DNA from: Syntrophomonas sp. DTU019 | Lineage (GTDB): Bacteria; Bacillota; Syntrophomonadia; Syntrophomonadales; Syntrophomonadaceae | DNA: 64,000 nt | Direction: 5' to 3' | Assembly (NCBI GenBank): GCA_913757435.1 | Contig: CAJYDM010000001.1 | Coordinates: 682,001-746,000, forward strand | Shown here: piece after piece, positions 28,170 to 59,771 of the stretch | Position numbering within the stretch: the stretch's first letter is position 1 | Layout: the number at the start of each line of letters is the position of its first letter | Notes under the pieces: generated by a model | Told to the model about the DNA's origin: nothing | Seen by the model: the letters and a program-made list of their open reading frames with translations, nothing else | Database searches by the model: none | Program-made: the position numbers and the translations under genes

Positions 28170-29468
28170 TCATTCGTAGTTATGAGGATCTAATTTCTTG
28201 ACCAGCATGCCGATAGTAGATTGCAGTTCAGCATCAGCAGCCATATCCTTTTCCACTTTCTCATTGGCATGGATCACCGTGGTGTGATCCCGGCCCCCAA
28301 ACTGCTCCCCGATCTGCGGATATGAAGCCTCAGTCAGTTTACGGCATAGGTACATGGCGATCTGCCGAGGATAAGCTACCTGCTTGGTCCGTTTCTTGGA
28401 GAGCATTTCTGCCAAAGCTATACCATAATAGGAAGCCACTTCTTTCTGCACCAGTTCGATAGTAATTTTTCGAGGGCGCGGCGGAGGCAGGATGTCCTTT
28501 AAAGCCTCACTGGCAGTGGACATATTAAGGGGTTTGTTGGTGATGGTGGCATAAGCCACCATGCGGATCAAGGCCCCCTCCAATTCACGGATATTGGAAT
28601 CTATATAATTGGCTATATAGTCTAATATATCATAGGGGATATTGAGATTTTCGGCCTGAGCCTTCTTGCGCAAAATGGCTACCCGAGTCTCCAAATCAGG
28701 GGGCTGGATATCGGTGATCAAGCCCCATTCAAACCGGGAACGCAGCCGGTCTTCCAGGGTGGGTATATTTTTCGGAGGGCGGTCGCTGGAGATCACCAGT
28801 TGTTTATTAGCCTCATACAGGGAATTGAAAGTGTGAAAAAACTCCTCCTGGGTGCGTTCTTTTCCGGCTAGAAACTGAATGTCGTCTATTAATAGCACAT
28901 CGATATTACGGTACTTATTGCGAAAACCGAAAGTGCTGTCATCTTTAATGGCGGTTATCAATTCGTTGGTAAACTGTTCTGAAGAAACATACATAACAGA
29001 ATGATTCGGGTTTTTTCGCAGTATATGATGGCCGATAGCCTGCATCAGGTGTGTTTTACCGAGTCCTACTCCGCCGTATATGAAAAGGGGGTTATACGCT
29101 TTGAAGGGCGACTCGCCTACTGCATAGCAAGCAGCGTGGGCAAAGCGGTTGCTATTGCCTACCACGAAAGTATCGAAGGTATATTTGCGATTAAGTGAGG
29201 AGGTTTTGTAATCCAGACTGGAATCTGTAGTAAGGAGCAGAGACACATCCTGATTGGTCAGGCTGCGCAGCTTCTTCACAATGTTGTCAAAATAGCGCGA
29301 CTCGATCCACTCTTTAGTAAGGGAATTGGGCACGCTGATTATTACATTATTATTATAGAAAGAATCGTATTTAACCAAACTGAACCAGATGTCAAAGCTA
29401 GTTGACCCGATTTCCTCGCGCAGGGATTGCATGATCCTGTTCCAGATCACGGCATAGTCAGTGGACAT
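28170..29468 (-). CDS. dnaA: Chromosomal replication initiator DnaA
   Basis: DnaA binds origin boxes and melts DNA. Domain I spans about 1-80 ([20 protein letters not shown]). AAA+ domain III has Walker [10 protein letters not shown] (132-140), Walker [12 protein letters not shown] (about 192-202) and SDRPPKNI. C-terminal domain IV has the DNA-binding signature [15 protein letters not shown] (about 393-407). Domain II is very short, giving 432 residues. The ATG at 29468 follows AGGAGG by 9 bases. It faces away from rpmH, leaving oriC between them. Confidence 0.98.
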
Positions 29469-36107: not shown

Positions 36108-36965
36108 TTGTTTAAGGCCTGGGAGAAGATGACCGGGAAAGGACAGCAGAAGGTAGTTGAACAGATCCCGGTGGAGATGATAAAACCTAATCCTTACCAG
36201 CCAAGGCGTCAGTTTGATGAAGATGAATTGTTTAAGCTGTCACAATCAATTCGGGCCTATGGCTTGATCCAACCGATAGTGGTGCGCTCGGTAGGCGAGG
36301 AATATCAAATTATTGCCGGGGAGCGCCGTTACCGGGCCTGTCTCTTACTGGGTATGGAACGCATCCCGGCCATCGTACAGGACATGAACGATCAAAATGC
36401 GGCCGCGGTATCATTGATCGAAAATATACAGCGCAAGGAACTGAATTATTTCGAAGAGGCCAATGCATACAGCCTGTTGATAAATAATTTTAACATGACT
36501 CAGGAAGAATTAGCCCGCAAGATCGGTAAGAGCCAGTCAGCTATAGCCAATAAACTTAGGCTGTTAAAGCTGCCCCTAGAGGTGCAGAGTCTGATCATTC
36601 CGGACATGCTGAGTGAACGGCATGCACGTGCGCTTTTGAAGCTCAATACGGCTGAGATGCAAATCGCGGCTATTAAACAAATATATGAACAGGATCTGAC
36701 GGTTAAAGCCACTGAGCAGTTGATTGATGATCTGAGCAAAAACAACATGCCCCAGGAAAGTGAAGCTAAACCGGGCGGACAATCAGTTTCCATGATTATT
36801 CGCGATGCGCGTATTTTTATCAACACCATTAAGGAGACAGTGCGACGGGCCAGGCAGATAGGGGTGGATATGCAGGTAGAGGAAGAAGACAGTGAGGACG
36901 AATACCGCATCCATATACGCATCGGCAAAATCCGCAAGCCGCGGCGCATGAGTGGGGGGTTATAG
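36108..36965 (+). CDS. noc: Nucleoid occlusion protein Noc (ParB family)
   Basis: This 285-residue ParB-type protein has PNPYQPRRQFDEDEL (about 28-42), the CTP-binding GERRYRAC (about 75-82), ENIQRKELNYFEEA (about 107-120) and an HTH with MTQEELARKIGKSQSAIANK (about 130-149). Its N-terminus (FKAWEKMTGKG) is amphipathic, as in Noc membrane anchors. It occupies the noc position between rsmG and soj and is distinct from the nearby spo0J. Start is TTG after GAGGAGG. A perfect Noc-type site occurs at 55684-55705, supporting this identity over a second ParB. Confidence 0.92.
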   Translation: MFKAWEKMTGKGQQKVVEQIPVEMIKPNPYQPRRQFDEDELFKLSQSIRAYGLIQPIVVRSVGEEYQIIAGERRYRACLLLGMERIPAIVQDMNDQNAAAVSLIENIQRKELNYFEEANAYSLLINNFNMTQEELARKIGKSQSAIANKLRLLKLPLEVQSLIIPDMLSERHARALLKLNTAEMQIAAIKQIYEQDLTVKATEQLIDDLSKNNMPQESEAKPGGQSVSMIIRDARIFINTIKETVRRARQIGVDMQVEEEDSEDEYRIHIRIGKIRKPRRMSGGL

Positions 36966-37085: not shown

Positions 37086-37907
37086 ATGGCATGGTTTAGG
37101 AGAGGCAAACCGACCCGTAAAACCGAAATAATCGGCCCCCCGGAGGTAGCCAAAAAATACGCTCTGGCCAATCAGAAGGGCGGAGTGGGAAAGACCACCA
37201 CGGCGGTAAACCTGGCAGCCTGTCTTGCTCTGGCCGGTTACCGGGTCTTGCTGGTGGACTGTGATCCACAAGGCAATGCCAGCAGCGGATTGGGCATCGA
37301 GAGGCGAAGTTTAAAGGCCTGCTTATATAACACACTGCTGGATTTACTGCCCTTATCGGAATTGATCACTCCCACCCGGGTGGAAAGGCTGGACCTGGTT
37401 CCTGCCACGATCCAATTGGCTGGGGCCGAGGTGGAGATGGCATCACTGGAGCATCGCGAGCACCGCCTCAGGGATGCGCTGCAGGTCGTGGAAGGCGATT
37501 ACCATTTCATACTGTTTGATTGCCCGCCGTCATTGGGATTGTTGACCATTAATGCTCTGGTGGCAGCAGACTCGGTTATCATCCCTCTGCAGTGTGAATA
37601 TTATGCCCTGGAAGGTTTGAGCCAGTTGGTGGATACACTGATGTTGGTCAAACGCCGTCTTAATCCAGCCTTACAGATTGAGGGCATTGTGTTTACCATG
37701 TTCGACGGGCGCACTAACCTTTCCATTCAAGTGGTGGATGAAGTGAAAAAACACTTTCGCAGACAGGTTTATCAGACTATCATCCCCCGCAATGTTCGAT
37801 TAAGCGAAGCCCCCAGCCATGGGAAACCGGTGGTAATGTATGATCCCAAATCAAGGGGAGCGGAAATCTACCAGGAATTCACTCAGGAGGTGCTCAAACG
37901 TGGCTAA
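37086..37907 (+). CDS. soj: Chromosome partitioning ATPase Soj (ParA)
   Basis: Soj is a ParA-type Walker ATPase acting with Spo0J/ParB in origin segregation and DnaA control. The deviant Walker A KGGVGKTTTAVNLA lies at about residues 31-44, with VLLVDCDPQGNASSGLG (about 54-70), FDCPPSLGLLTINAL (about 138-152) and the C-terminal PRNVRLSEAPSHGKP. It carries about 20 extra N-terminal residues (FRRGKPTRKTEIIGPPEVAK) ahead of the usual start. spo0J follows with an 8-base overlap. Confidence 0.95.
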   Translation: MAWFRRGKPTRKTEIIGPPEVAKKYALANQKGGVGKTTTAVNLAACLALAGYRVLLVDCDPQGNASSGLGIERRSLKACLYNTLLDLLPLSELITPTRVERLDLVPATIQLAGAEVEMASLEHREHRLRDALQVVEGDYHFILFDCPPSLGLLTINALVAADSVIIPLQCEYYALEGLSQLVDTLMLVKRRLNPALQIEGIVFTMFDGRTNLSIQVVDEVKKHFRRQVYQTIIPRNVRLSEAPSHGKPVVMYDPKSRGAEIYQEFTQEVLKRG

Positions 37908-38751
37908 TAAGGAACGGGGATTAGGCAGAGGTTTGGATGCTTTGCTTTCAACCGACTTGCAGGGTCTGGATAGTCAGCAAATGGTGGAAATAGCTATCGA
38001 AATGATTGTGCCGCGCCCCGGGCAACCGCGTACCAGATTCAATGAGGAGAGCATACTGGAATTGGCCAGATCGATTCAATCCCACGGCCTACTGCAACCC
38101 CTGTTGCTGCGCCCCAGAGGCAATAAATATGAAATTATCGCTGGCGAGCGACGTTTTCGTGCCGCCCAACAAGCTGGCTTGGAGTTGGTGCCTGCCATAG
38201 TGAGGAACATAAAAGATCGCGAGGCGGCCGAGATTTCGTTGATTGAGAACATTCAGCGCGATGACCTCAACACAGTAGAAGAGGCCAGGGCTTATCGCCA
38301 CTTGATGGACAGTTACGGTTATACACAGGAACGGGTTGCTGAAATTATCGGCAAGAGCAGGGCCCATGTGGCTAATACTATGCGTATTCTATCACTTCCC
38401 CAGGAAATTCTGCAGATGATAGAGGACGGGCAATTAACTGCGGGTCATGCCCGCACCCTGTTGGCACTTCCGGATACTCGGGCCCAGCTAAAGCAGGCTG
38501 CGGAAATCGTACAAAACAAACTGACAGTGCGACAGGCTGAAGCCAAAGGAAAGGCCAGAAAAAGATCCATCAAGAAGACGGTTACCGAGATTCCTGTTAA
38601 GAGCGCGGAAATCATGGATCTGGAGGAACGCCTGCAGCAGCACTATATGACCCGGGTGGAGATCTTCACCGGTCCCCGGGGAGGCAAAATTCAAATCAGC
38701 TATTTCGATGAAGATGATCTGCAGAGAGTGCTTGAGCTGCTCGGTTTATAA
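37900..38751 (+). CDS. spo0J: Chromosome partitioning protein Spo0J (ParB)
   Basis: ParB loads at parS and slides as a CTP-dependent clamp, recruiting SMC. The 283-residue protein begins ANKERGLGRGLDALL (the ParA-stimulating arginine-rich start). It has PRPGQPRTRF (about 38-47), GERRFRAAQQAG (about 84-95), ENIQRDDLNTVEEA (about 116-129), the HTH TQERVAEIIGKSRAHVANTM, and a C-terminal dimer domain. GTG 37900 follows AGGAGG by 9 bases. Two perfect parS sites lie just downstream. Confidence 0.96.
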   Translation: MANKERGLGRGLDALLSTDLQGLDSQQMVEIAIEMIVPRPGQPRTRFNEESILELARSIQSHGLLQPLLLRPRGNKYEIIAGERRFRAAQQAGLELVPAIVRNIKDREAAEISLIENIQRDDLNTVEEARAYRHLMDSYGYTQERVAEIIGKSRAHVANTMRILSLPQEILQMIEDGQLTAGHARTLLALPDTRAQLKQAAEIVQNKLTVRQAEAKGKARKRSIKKTVTEIPVKSAEIMDLEERLQQHYMTRVEIFTGPRGGKIQISYFDEDDLQRVLELLGL

Positions 38752-38755
38752 CCAG

Positions 38756-38771
38756 TGTTTCACGTGAAACA
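38756..38771. promoter_or_regulatory. parS: parS site 1
   Basis: The 16-base palindrome TGTTTCACGTGAAACA is an exact match to the Bacillus parS consensus. It lies 5 bases after the spo0J stop. Known role of the family: ParB loading point for origin segregation. Confidence 0.97.
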
Positions 38772-39019: not shown

Positions 39020-39037
39020 TGTTTCACGTGAAACATT
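39018..39037. promoter_or_regulatory. parS: parS site 2
   Basis: The same 16-base core as site 1 (39020-39035) is embedded in a 20-base perfect palindrome, AATGTTTCACGTGAAACATT. It lies 264 bases after site 1. The next 180 bases to the phosphoribosyltransferase start show no gene. Confidence 0.97.
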
Positions 39038-41655: not shown

Positions 41656-43101
41656 ATGGAACATTTGAAGAATATTCCAAACATGGATGAAATATTAAAA
41701 AACCCTCATGTTATGGCCTTGTGCAGCCGAGTCCGAAGGGATCTGGTGGTTGCGGCTGCTCGGGTTGCGGTAGCCGGGTTGCGCACCGAACTGCTGGAAC
41801 GTCCCCAGCCAGCATCTAAAACCAGCCTCCTGGAGCAAGCTGTGGAACGCACCACCAAAACAATAAATGACTTGAAGAGGGGAACCCTGCAGGAGGTAAT
41901 TAACGGTACTGGGGTGGTATTGCATACCAATCTGGGCCGGGCACCGCTATCGGCGATGGCCTTGCAGGAAATCTACCACTTGGGGGCAGGTTACACCAAT
42001 CTGGAAATGGAATTGAGCAGCGGGGACAGGGGGTCGCGCTACCGTCACCTGGAAGGCTTGTTGACCAGGTTGACTGGTGCCGAAGCTGCTTTGGTAGTAA
42101 ACAACAATGCGGCTGCGGTTTTTTTGGGGTTGAACACGCTAGCGGCGGGGCGTGAAGTGATCGTGTCCCGGGGCCAGCTGGTGGAGATCGGTGGGGCGTT
42201 TCGCATCCCCGAGGTAATGAAGGCTAGCGGGGCCTGTCTGGTGGAGGTAGGGACAACCAATAAGACATATGGGGCAGATTACCTGGAAGCCATCAATGCC
42301 GAGACAGCACTGCTTTTCAGCGCCCATACTTCGAATTACAGAATTGTCGGCTTTACTCGTGAGGTCAGCCTAGCAGAGCTGGTGGAGGTTGGACAACGAG
42401 CCTCGCTTCCGGTTATGCATGACCTGGGCAGCGGGGTCTTATGCGATCTTAGTGCCTGGGGCCTAAAAGAGGAACCAACCGTAAAAGCCTCAATCGAAGC
42501 CGGGGTGGATATCGTTACCTTCAGCGGCGACAAGCTGCTGGGGGGGCCTCAAGCCGGGATTATTGTGGGAAAAAAGACCTATATAGACGCCATGAAAAAG
42601 AACCAACTGCTGCGCGCCTTGAGGGTGGACAAACTGACTATAGCTGCTTTAGAAGGCACCCTAAAAGCCTATCTGACTGAACATCCTGAACAGGATATAC
42701 CGGTTCTGAGAATGTTAACCGCTGCCCCGGAGGAACTTTATGATAAGAGCGGCCAGTTGTGCCAGGAGCTGCAGACGGCGGTAGGCAGCCATCCGCGGGT
42801 GTCACATATAGCAGTGGTACCGCTTGAGGATCGGGTCGGGGGTGGGGCTTACCCGATTCATAGCCTGCCCGGTTGTGGAGTTGAAATAGCTATTGGGCAG
42901 GGGCTGGAGGCTATCGCCCGAAGACTGCGGCAAAGCCGCCCCGCGCTACTCACCAGGATACAGGACAACTGTCTGTTGATCAGTGCTCGGACTGTCGAGA
43001 TGGTTCAGATCAAGCAAATAGCTGAGCTGCTCAAGCAGGCCTTGAAAGATGTTCAGTCTGAGGGAAAGACCGGCAGCGAAAGCGCCCAGGAGGAGATATA
43101 A
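41656..43101 (+). CDS. selA: L-seryl-tRNA(Sec) selenium transferase
   Basis: SelA converts Ser-tRNA(Sec) to Sec-tRNA(Sec) using selenophosphate. The 481-residue PLP enzyme has NGTGVVLHTNLGRAPLS (about 83-99), VVNNNAAAVFLGLN (about 147-160), HDLGSG (about 255-260) and the PLP lysine K293 in FSGDKLLGGPQAG. Length and motifs are standard. It lies directly before selB, with selC 10.5 kb and selD 15.6 kb downstream. Confidence 0.98.
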   Translation: MEHLKNIPNMDEILKNPHVMALCSRVRRDLVVAAARVAVAGLRTELLERPQPASKTSLLEQAVERTTKTINDLKRGTLQEVINGTGVVLHTNLGRAPLSAMALQEIYHLGAGYTNLEMELSSGDRGSRYRHLEGLLTRLTGAEAALVVNNNAAAVFLGLNTLAAGREVIVSRGQLVEIGGAFRIPEVMKASGACLVEVGTTNKTYGADYLEAINAETALLFSAHTSNYRIVGFTREVSLAELVEVGQRASLPVMHDLGSGVLCDLSAWGLKEEPTVKASIEAGVDIVTFSGDKLLGGPQAGIIVGKKTYIDAMKKNQLLRALRVDKLTIAALEGTLKAYLTEHPEQDIPVLRMLTAAPEELYDKSGQLCQELQTAVGSHPRVSHIAVVPLEDRVGGGAYPIHSLPGCGVEIAIGQGLEAIARRLRQSRPALLTRIQDNCLLISARTVEMVQIKQIAELLKQALKDVQSEGKTGSESAQEEI

Positions 43102-43104
43102 TCT

Positions 43105-45003
43105 ATGAAGAGATTTATTGTCGGAACCGCCGGGCACATCGATCATGGCAAAACCACCCTGGTCAAAGCTTTGACGGGAGTGGACACCGACCGCCTTAAA
43201 GAGGAAAAGCAGCGCGGCATCTCCATTGAGTTGGGATTCGCGCCCTTTAAACTGCCCGGCGGACAGAAGGCAGCCATAGTCGACGTGCCTGGCCATGAGC
43301 GCTTCATTCGCCACATGCTGGCGGGGGCTTTTGGTATAGATATGGTCCTGCTGACCATTGCCGCCGACGAAGGGGTTATGCCGCAGACCCGGGAACATAT
43401 GGATATTATCGAACTGCTGGGGATAGACAAAGGCTTGGTAGTGATCACCAAAGCGGATCTGGTGGACGAAGAATGGATGATGATGGTGGAGGAAGATATC
43501 ACTCAGTACCTGCAAGGCACTATCTTGGAGGGAGCCCCGGTGATAGCTGTCTCAGCAGTGAGCCGGCAGGGTATCCCCGAGCTCTTAGAGGCCATTGAAA
43601 AAATCGCCGAAGAGGTGCAGGAGAGAAATGCGGAAGGCTATGCCAGGTTACCCATCGACCGGGCCTTCACTATCGCTGGATTCGGCACTGTGGTCACCGG
43701 CACCCTATGGTCCGGTCGAATCAAGGTTGGAGACACCCTGGAACTGATGCCCGGGGGGCGTCAGGTAAAGGTGCGCACCCTGCACGTGCATAATGATAAA
43801 GTCAGCACCGCCATGGCCGGACAACGAGTGGCGGTAAATCTGCAGGGCATTGAGTTGGCTGAAGTAAGCCGGGGTGAATTGCTGGCTACCCCGGGGGTTT
43901 TACACCCCAGTTACCGTATTGATGCCCGCCTCAAGCTGATCAAGTCCAGCAAACGCAGCCTGGATAATTGGAACCGGGTGCGCTTCCACCTGGGCACAGA
44001 TGAGGCTATGGGCCGGGTAGTGCTGCTGGATCGGGAACAATTGAACCCGGGGGAGGAAGCCCTGGTGCAACTGGTTATGGAGAAACCGGTGGTCGCCTAT
44101 AAAGGAGACCGTTTTGTAATCCGCTTTTATTCTCCGGTAACCACCATCGGAGGGGGTGTGGTGATCGATCCCCAGGCGCCCAAGCAGAAGCGTTTTAAGG
44201 AAGAAGTCCTGGAAGAACTGAGCATGAAGGAAGAAGGCAGTCTCTACGAGCGGGTGCTCTTAGAAATGGAGCACAAGCCCGAGGAGATCATAGCCATAAA
44301 CGATTTGGTGAAGCTGACCGGAAGCAGCATATCGGCGGTCACCGCGGAATTAGAGCAGTTAGTCCAGGATAGCCGAGTGGAAGACCTGAAGAACGGAGAC
44401 TATATCAGTCACAAAGGACTGGAGCGGATTCGGGAGCGCATTCAGGCCTGGCTGCGTGATTACCACCAGCAATACCCGCTGCGCAGCGGGTATTCCCGCG
44501 AAGATCTGCGCAGTCGTTTTTTCTCTAAAATCAACCCCCGCCGCTTCAATTTGATCGTCAAATACCTGGAAGAACATCAGGCCCTGGTATCGGTGCAGAA
44601 TAATCTGGCCTTGCCGGAGCATGCGCCCCAGCCAGGTCCCAGGGAAAAGGCTTTGATAGTCGAGATCAGCGCCGCTATGGAAAAGGACCTCTTCAGTCCG
44701 CCTGCCCTGAGTGAACTCAAGATGGCCCTGGTGGCGGATGAAAATATCTTTAACGAAGTAGTGTCGTATCTTATGGACAACGGACGCCTGGTTAAGATTA
44801 CCCAGGATATGGTTTTCTCCGCCAAAGCCTTACAGGTCGGCCGGGACCTTCTGCAGGAGTACTTTGCCGAGCATAAGGAGCTCACCCTGGCAGCCGCCAG
44901 AGACTTGTTCAACACCTCTCGAAAGTACACCCTGCCTTTGATAGAATATTATGATAGGACCAGGTTTACCAGAAGAGTAGGGGACATTCGAGTCAAGATA
45001 TAG
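43105..45003 (+). CDS. selB: Selenocysteine-specific elongation factor
   Basis: SelB delivers Sec-tRNA(Sec) to UGA codons marked by a SECIS hairpin. The 632-residue protein has a G domain with GHIDHGKTTL (10-19), DVPGHE (58-63 region) and TKAD (about 111), then EF-Tu-like domains II and III (about 175-360). Four winged-helix repeats at the C-terminus (about 370-632) bind SECIS RNA. It begins 3 bases after selA. Confidence 0.98.
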   Translation: MKRFIVGTAGHIDHGKTTLVKALTGVDTDRLKEEKQRGISIELGFAPFKLPGGQKAAIVDVPGHERFIRHMLAGAFGIDMVLLTIAADEGVMPQTREHMDIIELLGIDKGLVVITKADLVDEEWMMMVEEDITQYLQGTILEGAPVIAVSAVSRQGIPELLEAIEKIAEEVQERNAEGYARLPIDRAFTIAGFGTVVTGTLWSGRIKVGDTLELMPGGRQVKVRTLHVHNDKVSTAMAGQRVAVNLQGIELAEVSRGELLATPGVLHPSYRIDARLKLIKSSKRSLDNWNRVRFHLGTDEAMGRVVLLDREQLNPGEEALVQLVMEKPVVAYKGDRFVIRFYSPVTTIGGGVVIDPQAPKQKRFKEEVLEELSMKEEGSLYERVLLEMEHKPEEIIAINDLVKLTGSSISAVTAELEQLVQDSRVEDLKNGDYISHKGLERIRERIQAWLRDYHQQYPLRSGYSREDLRSRFFSKINPRRFNLIVKYLEEHQALVSVQNNLALPEHAPQPGPREKALIVEISAAMEKDLFSPPALSELKMALVADENIFNEVVSYLMDNGRLVKITQDMVFSAKALQVGRDLLQEYFAEHKELTLAAARDLFNTSRKYTLPLIEYYDRTRFTRRVGDIRVKI

Positions 45004-53623: not shown

Positions 53624-53721
53624 GGAAGCGGATCGGTCCTGGTGGGTCGCCTGGACTTCAAATCCAGTTGTGCGGCGGCGATCCCGTCGCGGGTGAGTTC
53701 GATTCTCACACGCTTCCGCCA
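53624..53721 (+). tRNA. selC: Selenocysteine tRNA (TCA)
   Basis: The 98-base tRNA has an eight-pair acceptor GGAAGCGG, an unusually long variable arm (GCGGCGGCGAUCCCGUCGCG) and anticodon TCA in CTGGACTTCAAATCCAG, with encoded CCA. It is charged by SerS, converted by SelA and delivered by SelB. It lies 214 bases after the CBS-ACT gene. An IS1182-type remnant begins 29 bases beyond, as mobile elements often do next to tRNA genes. Confidence 0.97.
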
Positions 53722-53749: not shown

Positions 53750-55256
53750 TTATCGTAGCAATGCGGTATTGCAGGGGTATTTTCGTTTCTTATTAGAGCG
53801 GAGTTGGTTGTTTGATTCCAGCACGATAACTGGTGTTTTCACGTCTGACCGCAATATTGTGTATTTGATCTCTAACCCGGTCAGCCTGGATGGTTTTAAA
53901 CTAACCCGTAATATCCGGTCTTTCTTCTGGGTCTTTACTGGACATATATCAAAATTCGGGCATCCTTGGCAATCCTCGTGTTTGAAGTGGCAACTGCTAG
54001 TCTTGGAACCGGGATTGAAATCGCTTCTAAATGGGATCTTGCCCTGGGGACAACTGATTATTTTCATATCATCATCAAACTTAAAACTGGTTGTGGAAAG
54101 TTTATCTGATGGAGCCTTACGTCCGGTCATATCTGTATAGTGTAGGTTAACCTCTAGCTCATCTGCCATTTCTATGACCTCTTGGCCGTAGTAACCTCCA
54201 TCTAAGTAGATGTCCTTACATCCGTCCTTTGTTTGATGATGGGTATGCGCTCCTTAGCCATCTCTACATCGCTGATGTTATTGGGTTGTACTGAAAAGTC
54301 GGTAATCACCTGAATCGGGTTTTTTTGCTACTGGTTTCGCTCACGTTTAAAACGTAGCCGCTATGGTTCTTACCCGCTTTGTTACGGAAGGTAGCGTCAC
54401 TATCATAAGCTGATTGCAGGGAACCGCTTTCAATTTCACTACTGGGCTTGGCGAGCCATATTCCCTTAGATTCATCGAAGGCAGCCTGTTCGCCTAGAAA
54501 ACGCTTAAGCAGAACCATTTCTCGTTTTGAAGCAAGGTTACGATCCTTATTTGCCAAGTTATCTACCTCTTGCATGAGGTTAAGGACTTTCTGGAACCTG
54601 CTTTCCAGTTCCTGATTTCTAGTTCTGTATAGTAAATCAGTTCTGAAGCTATCTCTTAACACTTGTTTGAGATTATCGGAAAGCATGTTAGAGGCAATGC
54701 CTCTTACCGCTTGAACCAATACATCCAAGGCTAACGAGAGTCTACCGGCTTTCTTGATATTGGGAGAAATCAAGGTAGAATCCATACGCTGGTCATCGGT
54801 TTTTATCCCGGCTTGTTCGATAAAATTCTTGGTTAGGATTTCAAACTGTTGGAAAATCACTTCATCTTGCTCGGGATACTCTAATATGTGCCTATAAACT
54901 CTTTCTCTGAATTCGTAAAGGGTACGTTCAGCCAGGTAAACCTCACCCAGGTTTCTTATACCCAGGGCATAATTGACCTGGAAGTTAAAGTAGAACTGCT
55001 CGATTAATTCTTGATCGGTATAACCAAACATGTTTTTGATAATCTCTAATGACATCAGTATATTAACCGGAACATTGGGTCTACCGGTATCAAGACAATA
55101 CATGGGGGCAAACAGATCTTCGTTGATTTTACAAAAAACATGTTCATAGAAAATCGGTGCCCAGGTTTTATTTAGTAGTTTGGCTACACTTGGTCTCATG
55201 GACTGGTAATGGCTAAAAAGTTCATCTTGATAGTGACTATCGTTTTTACGGAACAT
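53750..55256 (-). pseudogene. IS1182-family transposase, two frameshifts
   Basis: Minus strand. The N-terminal 316 residues are intact (RPSVAKLLNKTWAPIFYEHVF, then the DUF772-like TGRPNVPVNILMSLEIIK and an RMDSTLISPNIKK segment). The frame breaks at an A-run near 54,325, resumes as NPIQVITDF..QPNNISDVEMAKERIPIIK, breaks again near 54,237 (CAAAG), then resumes as GCKDIYLDGGYYGQEV and the cysteine-rich C-terminus (CPQGKIPF, CQGCPNFDICP). Both lesions are one-base shifts. Inverted-repeat ends could not be identified, so the element may be incomplete. Inactive as written. Confidence 0.88.
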
Positions 55257-55683: not shown

Positions 55684-55705
55684 AATTATTTCCCGGGAAA
55701 TAATT
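55684..55705. promoter_or_regulatory. Perfect Noc-binding site (NBS)
   Basis: The core ATTTCCCGGGAAAT (55688-55701) is the exact Bacillus Noc consensus and sits inside a 22-base perfect palindrome. The Noc protein is encoded 19 kb away at 36108. The known role is Noc loading to keep division septa off the nucleoid. It lies just beyond the 3' end of the VTT gene, in non-coding DNA. Confidence 0.85.
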
Positions 55706-55742: not shown

Positions 55743-56342
55743 CTATTGGTCCACCTTCTGGGCAAGCGGAGTTCTGCCTTTGGTCAGGCAGCGCCCCGGC
55801 AAGGCCAGGACCAAGATGATGCCCAGGATTAATAGGGTGGACTTGACATCGCGGTTGCGCAGCAGCGAGATCCCCAGCCCCGTATAGAGAAGAGCTGTGG
55901 GGATTTTGCCCAGAGCAGAGGAGAAGAAGAAATGCCAAAAAGGTACTTTGCCGATGCCGGCGGCGATATTTATCAATGGAGTTGGAATTACCGGGATAAT
56001 TCGGGCCAGCAGTATACCCCAGAAGGCGGCCTCCCGGTTGAAGTGCTGCACATCATAGCCCCAGCGGGATTGTATCTTCTGACAAACCCAGTTCCCTCCC
56101 GCCAGGCGTGACAGCGTGTAAGCCACACAAGCCCCCAACAAAGCACCTGACCAGGAGAGCAAAAAACCCAGCTTGAAGCCGAACAGCATTCCACAGGCAC
56201 TGGCCAACACCACATAGGGGAACACCGGCAGGGCAGCCTGCAGGGCGAAAAGAAGAAATGCTGCTAAGGGAGCCATTATGCCGAAGGACTGCACATAGTT
56301 TATCACCACGTTTATGCTCACATTACCCAGATAGTAACCCAT
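55743..56342 (-). CDS. VTT-domain (TVP38/TMEM64, DedA-related) membrane protein
   Basis: The 199-residue protein has about five hydrophobic segments. The VTT/SNARE-associated motif appears as ASACGMLFGFKLGFLLSWSGALLGACVAY (about 47-75) and LLARIIPVIPTPLINIAAGIGKVPF (about 112-136). Family members in bacteria are linked to lipid transport across the membrane and envelope homeostasis. It starts at ATG 56342 after GAGG, divergent from the CvpA gene. No operon partner is evident. Confidence 0.92.
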   Translation of the reverse strand: MGYYLGNVSINVVINYVQSFGIMAPLAAFLLFALQAALPVFPYVVLASACGMLFGFKLGFLLSWSGALLGACVAYTLSRLAGGNWVCQKIQSRWGYDVQHFNREAAFWGILLARIIPVIPTPLINIAAGIGKVPFWHFFFSSALGKIPTALLYTGLGISLLRNRDVKSTLLILGIILVLALPGRCLTKGRTPLAQKVDQ

Positions 56343-58733: not shown

Positions 58734-59771
58734 GTGGAGAAGCGCCGTTTGACGCAGATGGTCCGGGCCGCGGGGTGAGCTTCCAAAATAGGTCCGGGGA
58801 CCTTGGAAAACCTTCTGAAAGGCATTCCCCTGCCGGTTCAGCAAAACATCCTGGTGGGTATGGAAACCCGTGATGACGCGGCAGTATACCGCCTAGACGG
58901 GGCGACTGCATTGGTGCAGACGGTGGATTTCTTTACCCCTATGGTGGATGATCCCTATCTGTTTGGGCAGATTGCAGCCACCAACGCCTTAAACGATATT
59001 TATGCCATGGGAGCCCAACCGCTGTTGGCACTAAATATCGTGTGTTACCCCATCTGTGAAGACCTGCAGGTACTGGGGCAGATATTGCAAGGCGGGCTGG
59101 ACAAGGTCACTGAGGCCGGGGCTTATCTGTTAGGTGGGCACAGTGTGGACGACAACGAGCCCAAATACGGAATGGCAGTTACCGGACTGGTACACCCAGA
59201 GCGGGTGCTTACCAATGCCGGGGCAAAGCCAGGGGATATCATATATATAACCAAACCCATCGGCAACGGCATTATCGCTACCGCCATAAAAGCGGATATG
59301 GCAACGGCTGAGGCCTATGAGGAAGCGGTGCGTTTGATGAGCACCCTCAACCGGGAGAGTAGTGAGATAGCTTCAAGGCTAGGGGTCAATGCGGCTACCG
59401 ATGTTACCGGTTTCGGCCTGTTGGGGCATCTGGCGGAGCTGGCCCAGGCCAGCGGGGTTACAGTGCAATTGAGGGCGGGCGCGGTTCCGCTTATAAACGG
59501 GGCTTGGGACAGTGCTGCTATGGGACTGGTCCCTGCCGGAACTTATAATAACCGCAGCTACCTGGAGGAAAAAATCAAGGTGAACGCAGGGCTAAATCCC
59601 ACCTGGTTGGACCTGTTGTACACCCCCGAGACTGCGGGTGGCCTGTTGCTGGCCGTGGATCCTGACAAGGGCAGGGCGCTGGAGCAAATGATGCTCAAAC
59701 AACAGCTGATGTGCGTGCCGATTGGTGAGGCAGTTGAAGCCAGGCCGTATACCATCGAAATTGAAGATTAA
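58734..59771 (+). CDS. selD: Selenide, water dikinase, itself a selenoprotein (UGA at codon 15)
   Basis: SelD makes selenophosphate, the selenium donor for SelA. The true start is GTG 58734 after GAGGAGGGG; it gives EKRRLTQMVRAAG, then TGA (58776-58778) read as Sec, then ASKIGPGTLENLLKG. In SelD the catalytic residue at this place is Cys or Sec, followed by the essential Lys (here two residues later). Downstream motifs include DFFTPMVDDPYLFGQIAATNALNDIYAMGA and GGHSVDDNEPKYGMAVTG. A reader who stops at the UGA would start at 58803 and lose the active site. The product is 345 residues. Confidence 0.93.
58779..58813 (+). promoter_or_regulatory. Candidate bacterial SECIS hairpin in selD
   Basis: Immediately after the UGA, TTCCAA (58781-58786) pairs with TTGGAA (58803-58808), and GGTC (58791-58794) with GACC (58799-58802) around a CGGG loop. 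A bulged AATA separates the two helices. Placement within about 15-40 bases after UGA fits SelB-recognised SECIS elements. Confidence 0.7.

What the first reader, a model, noticed from the sequence alone, without database searches (positions are those of the whole stretch)
55684..55705. Perfect Noc-binding site 19 kb from noc
A 22-base perfect palindrome contains the exact 14-base Bacillus Noc consensus. This extends the Noc system, with unchanged site specificity, to this clostridial lineage and supports the gene at 36108 as Noc and not a second ParB.
Basis: partly seen in the sequence, partly recalled or inferred. Interest (0 to 1): 0.6.

Follow-up and report, generated by a model that had tools for sequence, protein, structure and literature searches.

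The report
Lone origin-proximal Noc-binding site, conserved
A perfect copy of the DNA tag bound by the cell-division regulator Noc sits near the replication origin of this Syntrophomonas-like bacterium, and it is the only perfect copy in the genome; it is kept at the same place in related genera, which suggests that Noc here loads at one spot near the origin and not at dozens of sites around the chromosome as in Bacillus.

Summary
Window 55684-55705 is a perfect 22-bp palindrome holding the 16-bp Noc-binding consensus TATTTCCCGGGAAATA. The gene at 36108 is Noc by family score, by the Q-K-K-R specificity residues and by a tree; a separate ParB and two perfect parS sites lie beside it.

There is no detectable dispersed array. 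The site is still not chance. The 16-bp core is invariant in the same intergenic slot, between convergent genes, in 16 genomes of 7 genera, while its flanks have diverged. The reversed-pattern control is 0 in all 101 relatives.

Other family members keep the motif at a second conserved slot (uvrC-holin, about 260-300 kb from noc). In other families the motif lies inside noc itself, with invariant codons ATT TCC CGG/CAG GAA, showing selection on the DNA.

Best reading: a functional Noc loading site in a sparse, noc-linked, parS-like layout, unlike the ~70 sites of B. subtilis and 41 of S. aureus. That it acts as an origin-specific membrane anchor is inferred, not shown. Weak degenerate sites cannot be excluded, and no binding data exist.

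The parts
55684..55705 (.). 22-bp perfect palindrome; 16-bp core TATTTCCCGGGAAATA at 55687-55702 = Noc-binding site (site A)
   Evidence: invariant 16-bp core in 16 genomes of 7 genera
36108..36965 (+). noc (285 aa, TTG start, GAGGAGG ribosome-binding site)
   Evidence: TIGR04285 331 bits over cut-off 315; QKKR and tree
37086..37907 (+). parA/soj-type ATPase
   Evidence: ParA-family matches, none over a curated cut-off; position between noc and parB
37840..38751 (+). parB/spo0J (start probably near 37900); specificity residues R-T-S-G, not Noc-type
38756..38771 (.). perfect parS TGTTTCACGTGAAACA
39020..39035 (.). perfect parS TGTTTCACGTGAAACA
28170..29468 (-). dnaA-like gene; with the GC-skew sign change near 27-29 kb it marks the likely origin, about 26 kb from the Noc site
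   Evidence: ORF; GC skew; identity by gene order and sequence, not by a family search
55743..56342 (-). VTT-domain (TVP38/DedA-like) gene whose 3' end faces the site; marker of the conserved slot
   Evidence: PF09335 101 bits; orthologous order in L077, L079, L082, L084, L095, L096
52747..53409 (+). CBS-ACT domain gene on the other, convergent side of the slot

Best explanation
The palindrome is a functional binding (loading) site for the Noc encoded 18.7 kb away, and it is the only strong one in this genome. Proposed action, from the known Noc mechanism: Noc dimers recognise the 16-bp site, bind CTP, close into clamps that slide onto neighbouring DNA, and expose an N-terminal amphipathic helix that attaches the complex to the membrane. 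With one strong site about 26 kb from the origin, the Noc-DNA-membrane complex would form at the origin region only. It would act as an origin-proximal membrane anchor and local block to division rather than a chromosome-wide occlusion array. Shown here: identity of the protein, exactness, uniqueness and conservation of the site, and noc-linkage of such sites in Clostridia. Inferred: binding, spreading, membrane attachment and effect on division.
For: Noc identity. Exact consensus. Conserved orthologous slot with a 16-bp invariant core and free flanks in 16 genomes of 7 genera. Exact motif in 52 of 101 relatives against 0 for the reversed control, and in 154 of 398 phylum genomes against 5 with a control match. 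The exact motif goes with noc in the order: 33 of 49 noc+ genomes against 3 of 14 noc- (Fisher p=0.003). Sites inside noc in 20 of 32 tabulated noc+ genomes, with synonymous codons fixed (18 genes, 8 families, log10 p about -17 against own-gene codon usage). N-terminal amphipathic segment MFKAWEKMTGKG, moment 0.61. CTP-type motifs GERRYRA and ENIQR are visible in the sequence. Mechanism of Noc: PMC8429893, PMC4331003. Spreading 8-10 kb: PMC5540599.
Against: No binding or localisation data exist for this lineage. B. subtilis Noc uses about 70 sites (PMC4331003), so weak degenerate sites may exist here below detection. Relatives G003 (47 vs control 9), G023 (72 vs 10) and G044 (43 vs 16) have more two-mismatch copies than the reversed control, a control that proved unreliable at that level. 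The noc association is weaker in near-complete genomes (p=0.055). Some noc+ genomes show no exact site (16 of 49), possibly from incomplete assemblies or one-mismatch sites. The family also uses a second slot about 260-300 kb from noc, so not every member has the site beside noc.
Confidence: 0.7

Rival explanations
1. A normal Bacillus-like dispersed Noc system, with one perfect site and many weak degenerate sites that consensus counting misses.
For: Known Noc systems have about 70 (PMC4331003) and 41 (PMC5540599) sites, and bound sites need not be perfect. Two-mismatch copies exceed the reversed control in G003, G023 and G044. Other clostridial genomes reach 16-21 copies at one mismatch or less.
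Against: In the window's genome, copies with one or two mismatches equal a Markov background (observed 1 and 32, expected 1.5-2.0 and 23-31). At one mismatch or less, only this site is shared between G000 and G003; the two-mismatch matches shared with G003 lie in well-conserved stretches that look coding, and the two examined (fabZ/acc and pdp regions) are coding.
Confidence: 0.2
2. The palindrome serves flanking genes: a bidirectional terminator between convergent genes, or an operator of another regulator.
For: It is a palindrome between convergent genes and folds weakly (-10.4 kcal/mol, z -1.19).
Against: The terminator scan does not find it and there is no T run. The core is invariant to the base with no compensatory change, while the RNA fold of the homologues is not better than shuffled. 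The same motif recurs in unrelated slots (uvrC-holin, inside noc). At site A neither neighbour has its promoter there.
Confidence: 0.06
3. A chance match or passive relic.
For: A single copy; background expectation 0.04-0.06.
Against: Orthologous conservation across 7 genera with free flanks and the zero control in 101 genomes.
Confidence: 0.02

Closest known systems
Noc/NBS nucleoid-occlusion system of Bacillus subtilis and Staphylococcus aureus (PMC4331003, PMC5540599, PMC8429893)
   Same: Noc of the same family beside rsmG-parA-parB; same 16-bp site; same four specificity residues; amphipathic N-terminus predicted; site in the origin-proximal region.
   Different: One exact site and no detectable array, against about 70 and 41 bound sites; the site is fixed at one orthologous slot across genera; related families carry it inside noc.
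ParB/parS centromere (ParABS)
   Same: Few palindromic sites near the origin, close to their own gene; paralogous binding protein with the clamp-type ParB fold.
   Different: Different specificity residues (ParB R-T-S-G against Noc Q-K-K-R) and different site; both systems coexist here.
SlmA/SBS nucleoid occlusion of E. coli (as described in PMC4331003, PMC5540599)
   Same: Division regulator acting through specific chromosomal sites.
   Different: Unrelated protein family (from general knowledge) and a dispersed site array.

Membership tests
Noc protein family (TIGR04285) | Score above curated cut-off | tested here: met
   331 bits vs 315; the neighbouring ParB scores 242
Noc protein family (TIGR04285) | Specificity residues Q173 K179 K184 R201 (Caulobacter numbering, PMC7383237) | tested here: met
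   KSQSAIANKLRLLKLP...SERHAR aligned to Geobacillus Noc 7nfu; QKKR
Noc protein family (TIGR04285) | Falls with Noc and apart from ParB in a tree | tested here: met
   One branch, 100/97
Noc protein family (TIGR04285) | N-terminal amphipathic membrane helix | tested here: inconclusive
   Prediction only: moment 0.61, hydrophobicity 0.29, similar in family members; membrane binding not testable
Noc-binding site (NBS) | 16-bp consensus TATTTCCCGGGAAATA | tested here: met
   55687-55702
Noc-binding site (NBS) | Bound by Noc | not testable with these tools
   Needs ChIP-seq or in vitro binding
Dispersed Noc/NBS nucleoid-occlusion array | Tens of sites spread over the chromosome | tested here: not met
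   1 exact, 1 one-mismatch (inside pdp-like coding), 32 two-mismatch = background
Dispersed Noc/NBS nucleoid-occlusion array | Absence of sites near the terminus | tested here: inconclusive
   A single site gives no distribution; genome in 17 contigs
Dispersed Noc/NBS nucleoid-occlusion array | Division control in vivo | not testable with these tools
   Needs genetics; MinC-like proteins are present
ParB/parS | The gene at 36108 as a second ParB | tested here: not met
   Noc residues and tree; a separate parB and parS exist

The most novel reading that the evidence does not exclude
In Clostridia the Noc system is organised like parS: one or a few perfect sites linked to noc and the origin, often embedded in the noc coding sequence under DNA-level selection. 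In Syntrophomonadaceae the intragenic site was lost and replaced by conserved intergenic sites, one of which is this. Noc there would be an origin-specific membrane anchor, perhaps the state from which the dispersed Bacillus array evolved.
Probability: 0.4. Interest if true: 0.72.

Novelty: new variant of a known kind. Interest (0 to 1): 0.56.

Why it matters
The accepted account of Noc rests on dozens of dispersed sites that exclude the terminus. A lineage with Noc of unchanged specificity but a single conserved origin-proximal site separates the local membrane-anchoring or origin role of Noc from chromosome-wide occlusion. It offers a natural minimal system in which one site can be deleted, and it bears on how a parB duplicate with new specificity acquired its sites.

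Tried and rejected
The reversed-pattern control works for exact matches but is unreliable at two mismatches: in G000 37 were seen against 9-17 predicted by the Markov models, so the Markov background was preferred. The one-mismatch copy in G000 (C2:568688) is in a nucleoside-phosphorylase-like coding region, taken as chance. The fabZ copy (L090) encodes FPGNP, taken as chance. The window's genome lacks site B at uvrC (L157). Rfam finds no RNA element over the site. A Bacillus genome could not be fetched as a positive control, because control genomes carry no handles; literature counts were used instead. No report of clostridial or intragenic Noc sites was found in the held papers, but subscription papers such as the 2009 site-mapping study are not held. 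Structure prediction was available but not used, because family, residue and tree evidence sufficed.

Full report
OBSERVATION. Window 55684-55705 reads AATTATTTCCCGGGAAATAATT, a perfect 22-bp palindrome found once in the window. It contains the exact 14-mer ATTTCCCGGGAAAT at 55688-55701, and the outer bases complete the 16-bp Noc-binding consensus TATTTCCCGGGAAATA used in PMC7383237.

THE PROTEIN. The gene at 36108 scores 331 bits with TIGR04285 (cut-off 315), whereas the neighbouring ParB scores 242. Aligned to Geobacillus Noc (7nfu), it has the four specificity residues Q, K, K, R that PMC7383237 showed to decide between the Noc site and parS. The ParB has R-T-S-G and two perfect parS sites just after it, at 38756 and 39020. 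In a tree of 65 sequences, Noc and ParB fall on two sides of one branch with support 100/97, the window protein among the Nocs. The N-terminus MFKAWEKMTGKG is amphipathic (moment 0.61) and similar segments occur across the family. So Noc identity rests on the protein and not on the palindrome.

THE GENOME. The exact 14-mer occurs once in 3.2 Mb, with 34 copies at up to two mismatches. A Markov model of order 3-4 trained on 304 kb of the genome expects 0.04-0.06 exact, 1.5-2.0 one-mismatch and 23-31 two-mismatch copies; observed are 1, 1 and 32. The one-mismatch copy lies in a nucleoside-phosphorylase-like coding region.

WHY IT IS STILL REAL. Across 101 related genomes the exact motif occurs in 52, and the reversed control in none. 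In genera g1, g3, g18 and g22 it lies in the same gap, on the 3' side of the VTT gene and facing the CBS-ACT/transporter genes; where noc is on the same contig the distance is 10-20 kb. Counterparts next to the VTT gene were found in g6, g9 and g11. In 16 genomes of 7 genera the 16-bp core is invariant while almost every flanking column varies. Because the slot is bounded by convergent genes, an operator is unlikely. A terminator is unlikely because there is no T run, no compensatory change and no better-than-shuffled fold. Within the order, an exact motif goes with presence of noc: 33 of 49 noc+ against 3 of 14 noc- (Fisher p=0.003; 0.055 in genomes at least 90% complete).

A SECOND SLOT. Other genera of the family (g2, g5, g16, g20, g21) keep an exact motif between uvrC and a small holin-like gene; G005 has both slots. 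This slot is about 258-304 kb from noc in the two closed genomes. G010 and G025 have one-mismatch copies there. The window's genome lacks it.

INSIDE NOC. In other families the exact motif is embedded in the noc coding sequence at one of two places, both encoding ISREI: before the ERHAR motif, or about 45-50 codons later in the C-terminal linker. Of 18 genes with IS(R/Q)E at the first place, from 8 families, all use ATT TCC CGG/CAG GAA, while Arg codons a few positions away vary freely. The product of probabilities under each gene's own codon usage, one gene per family, is about 10^-17. This is selection on DNA. Of 32 noc+ genomes tabulated from the listed places, 20 have a site inside noc and 5 more within 25 kb (the table is a convenience subset of the listing and the families are not independent). 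Families f2 and f3 of the same order carry the linker copy, so the Syntrophomonadaceae probably lost an intragenic site and kept or gained the intergenic ones. Remnants such as ISPEI (g11) are consistent with this. Across 398 phylum genomes the exact count never exceeds 7.

HOW IT MOST LIKELY WORKS. From PMC8429893 and PMC4331003: Noc loads at its site, binds CTP, slides as a clamp and attaches to the membrane through its N-terminal helix. S. aureus Noc covers 8-10 kb around its sites (PMC5540599). With one strong site about 26 kb from the likely origin (dnaA-like gene at 28170; GC-skew switch near 27-29 kb), the complex would be confined to the origin region. At 18.7 kb the site is beyond that spreading range from noc itself, so autoregulation is unlikely here but plausible where the site is intragenic. 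Site identity and conservation are shown; loading, spreading, membrane attachment and division control are inferred.

LIMITS. Weak sites cannot be excluded: G003, G023 and G044 show more two-mismatch copies than the reversed control, although that control is unreliable at this level. Many relatives are fragmented assemblies, so absence of noc or of a site is uncertain. No Bacillus genome could be counted with the same method. The nearest named relatives are Syntrophomonas MAGs. That G023 is S. wolfei is my recollection from its length only.

Noticed in passing
L085-L089, L092-L094, L132, L134, L147 (uvrC-holin gap): Second orthologous Noc-type site in Syntrophomonadaceae, with a partly conserved TCGAA just beside it.
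   Followed up: partly
L162, L163, L177-L191, L263-L272: Noc-type sites embedded in noc coding sequence at two different places, both read as ISREI, with invariant codons.
   Followed up: partly
window 58740-59771: selD-like gene with an in-frame TGA at codons reading ...AAG-U-ASKIGPG, i.e. a likely selenocysteine-containing SelD; selA- and selB-like genes at 41656-45003 and tRNA-Sec at 53624-53717 (72 bits) are nearby.
   Followed up: partly
window 53750-55256: Two ORFs that look like pieces of one broken transposase (DUF772 and DDE_Tnp_1_6 matches), inserted between tRNA-Sec and the Noc site.
   Followed up: no
G023, G003, G044 whole genomes: Two-mismatch copies of the Noc motif well above the reversed control (72 vs 10, 47 vs 9, 43 vs 16); not resolved whether these are weak sites or composition.
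   Followed up: partly
L275 (G040): Exact site of the window's type in a genome where no noc was found; the assembly is fragmented, so noc may simply be missing.
   Followed up: no
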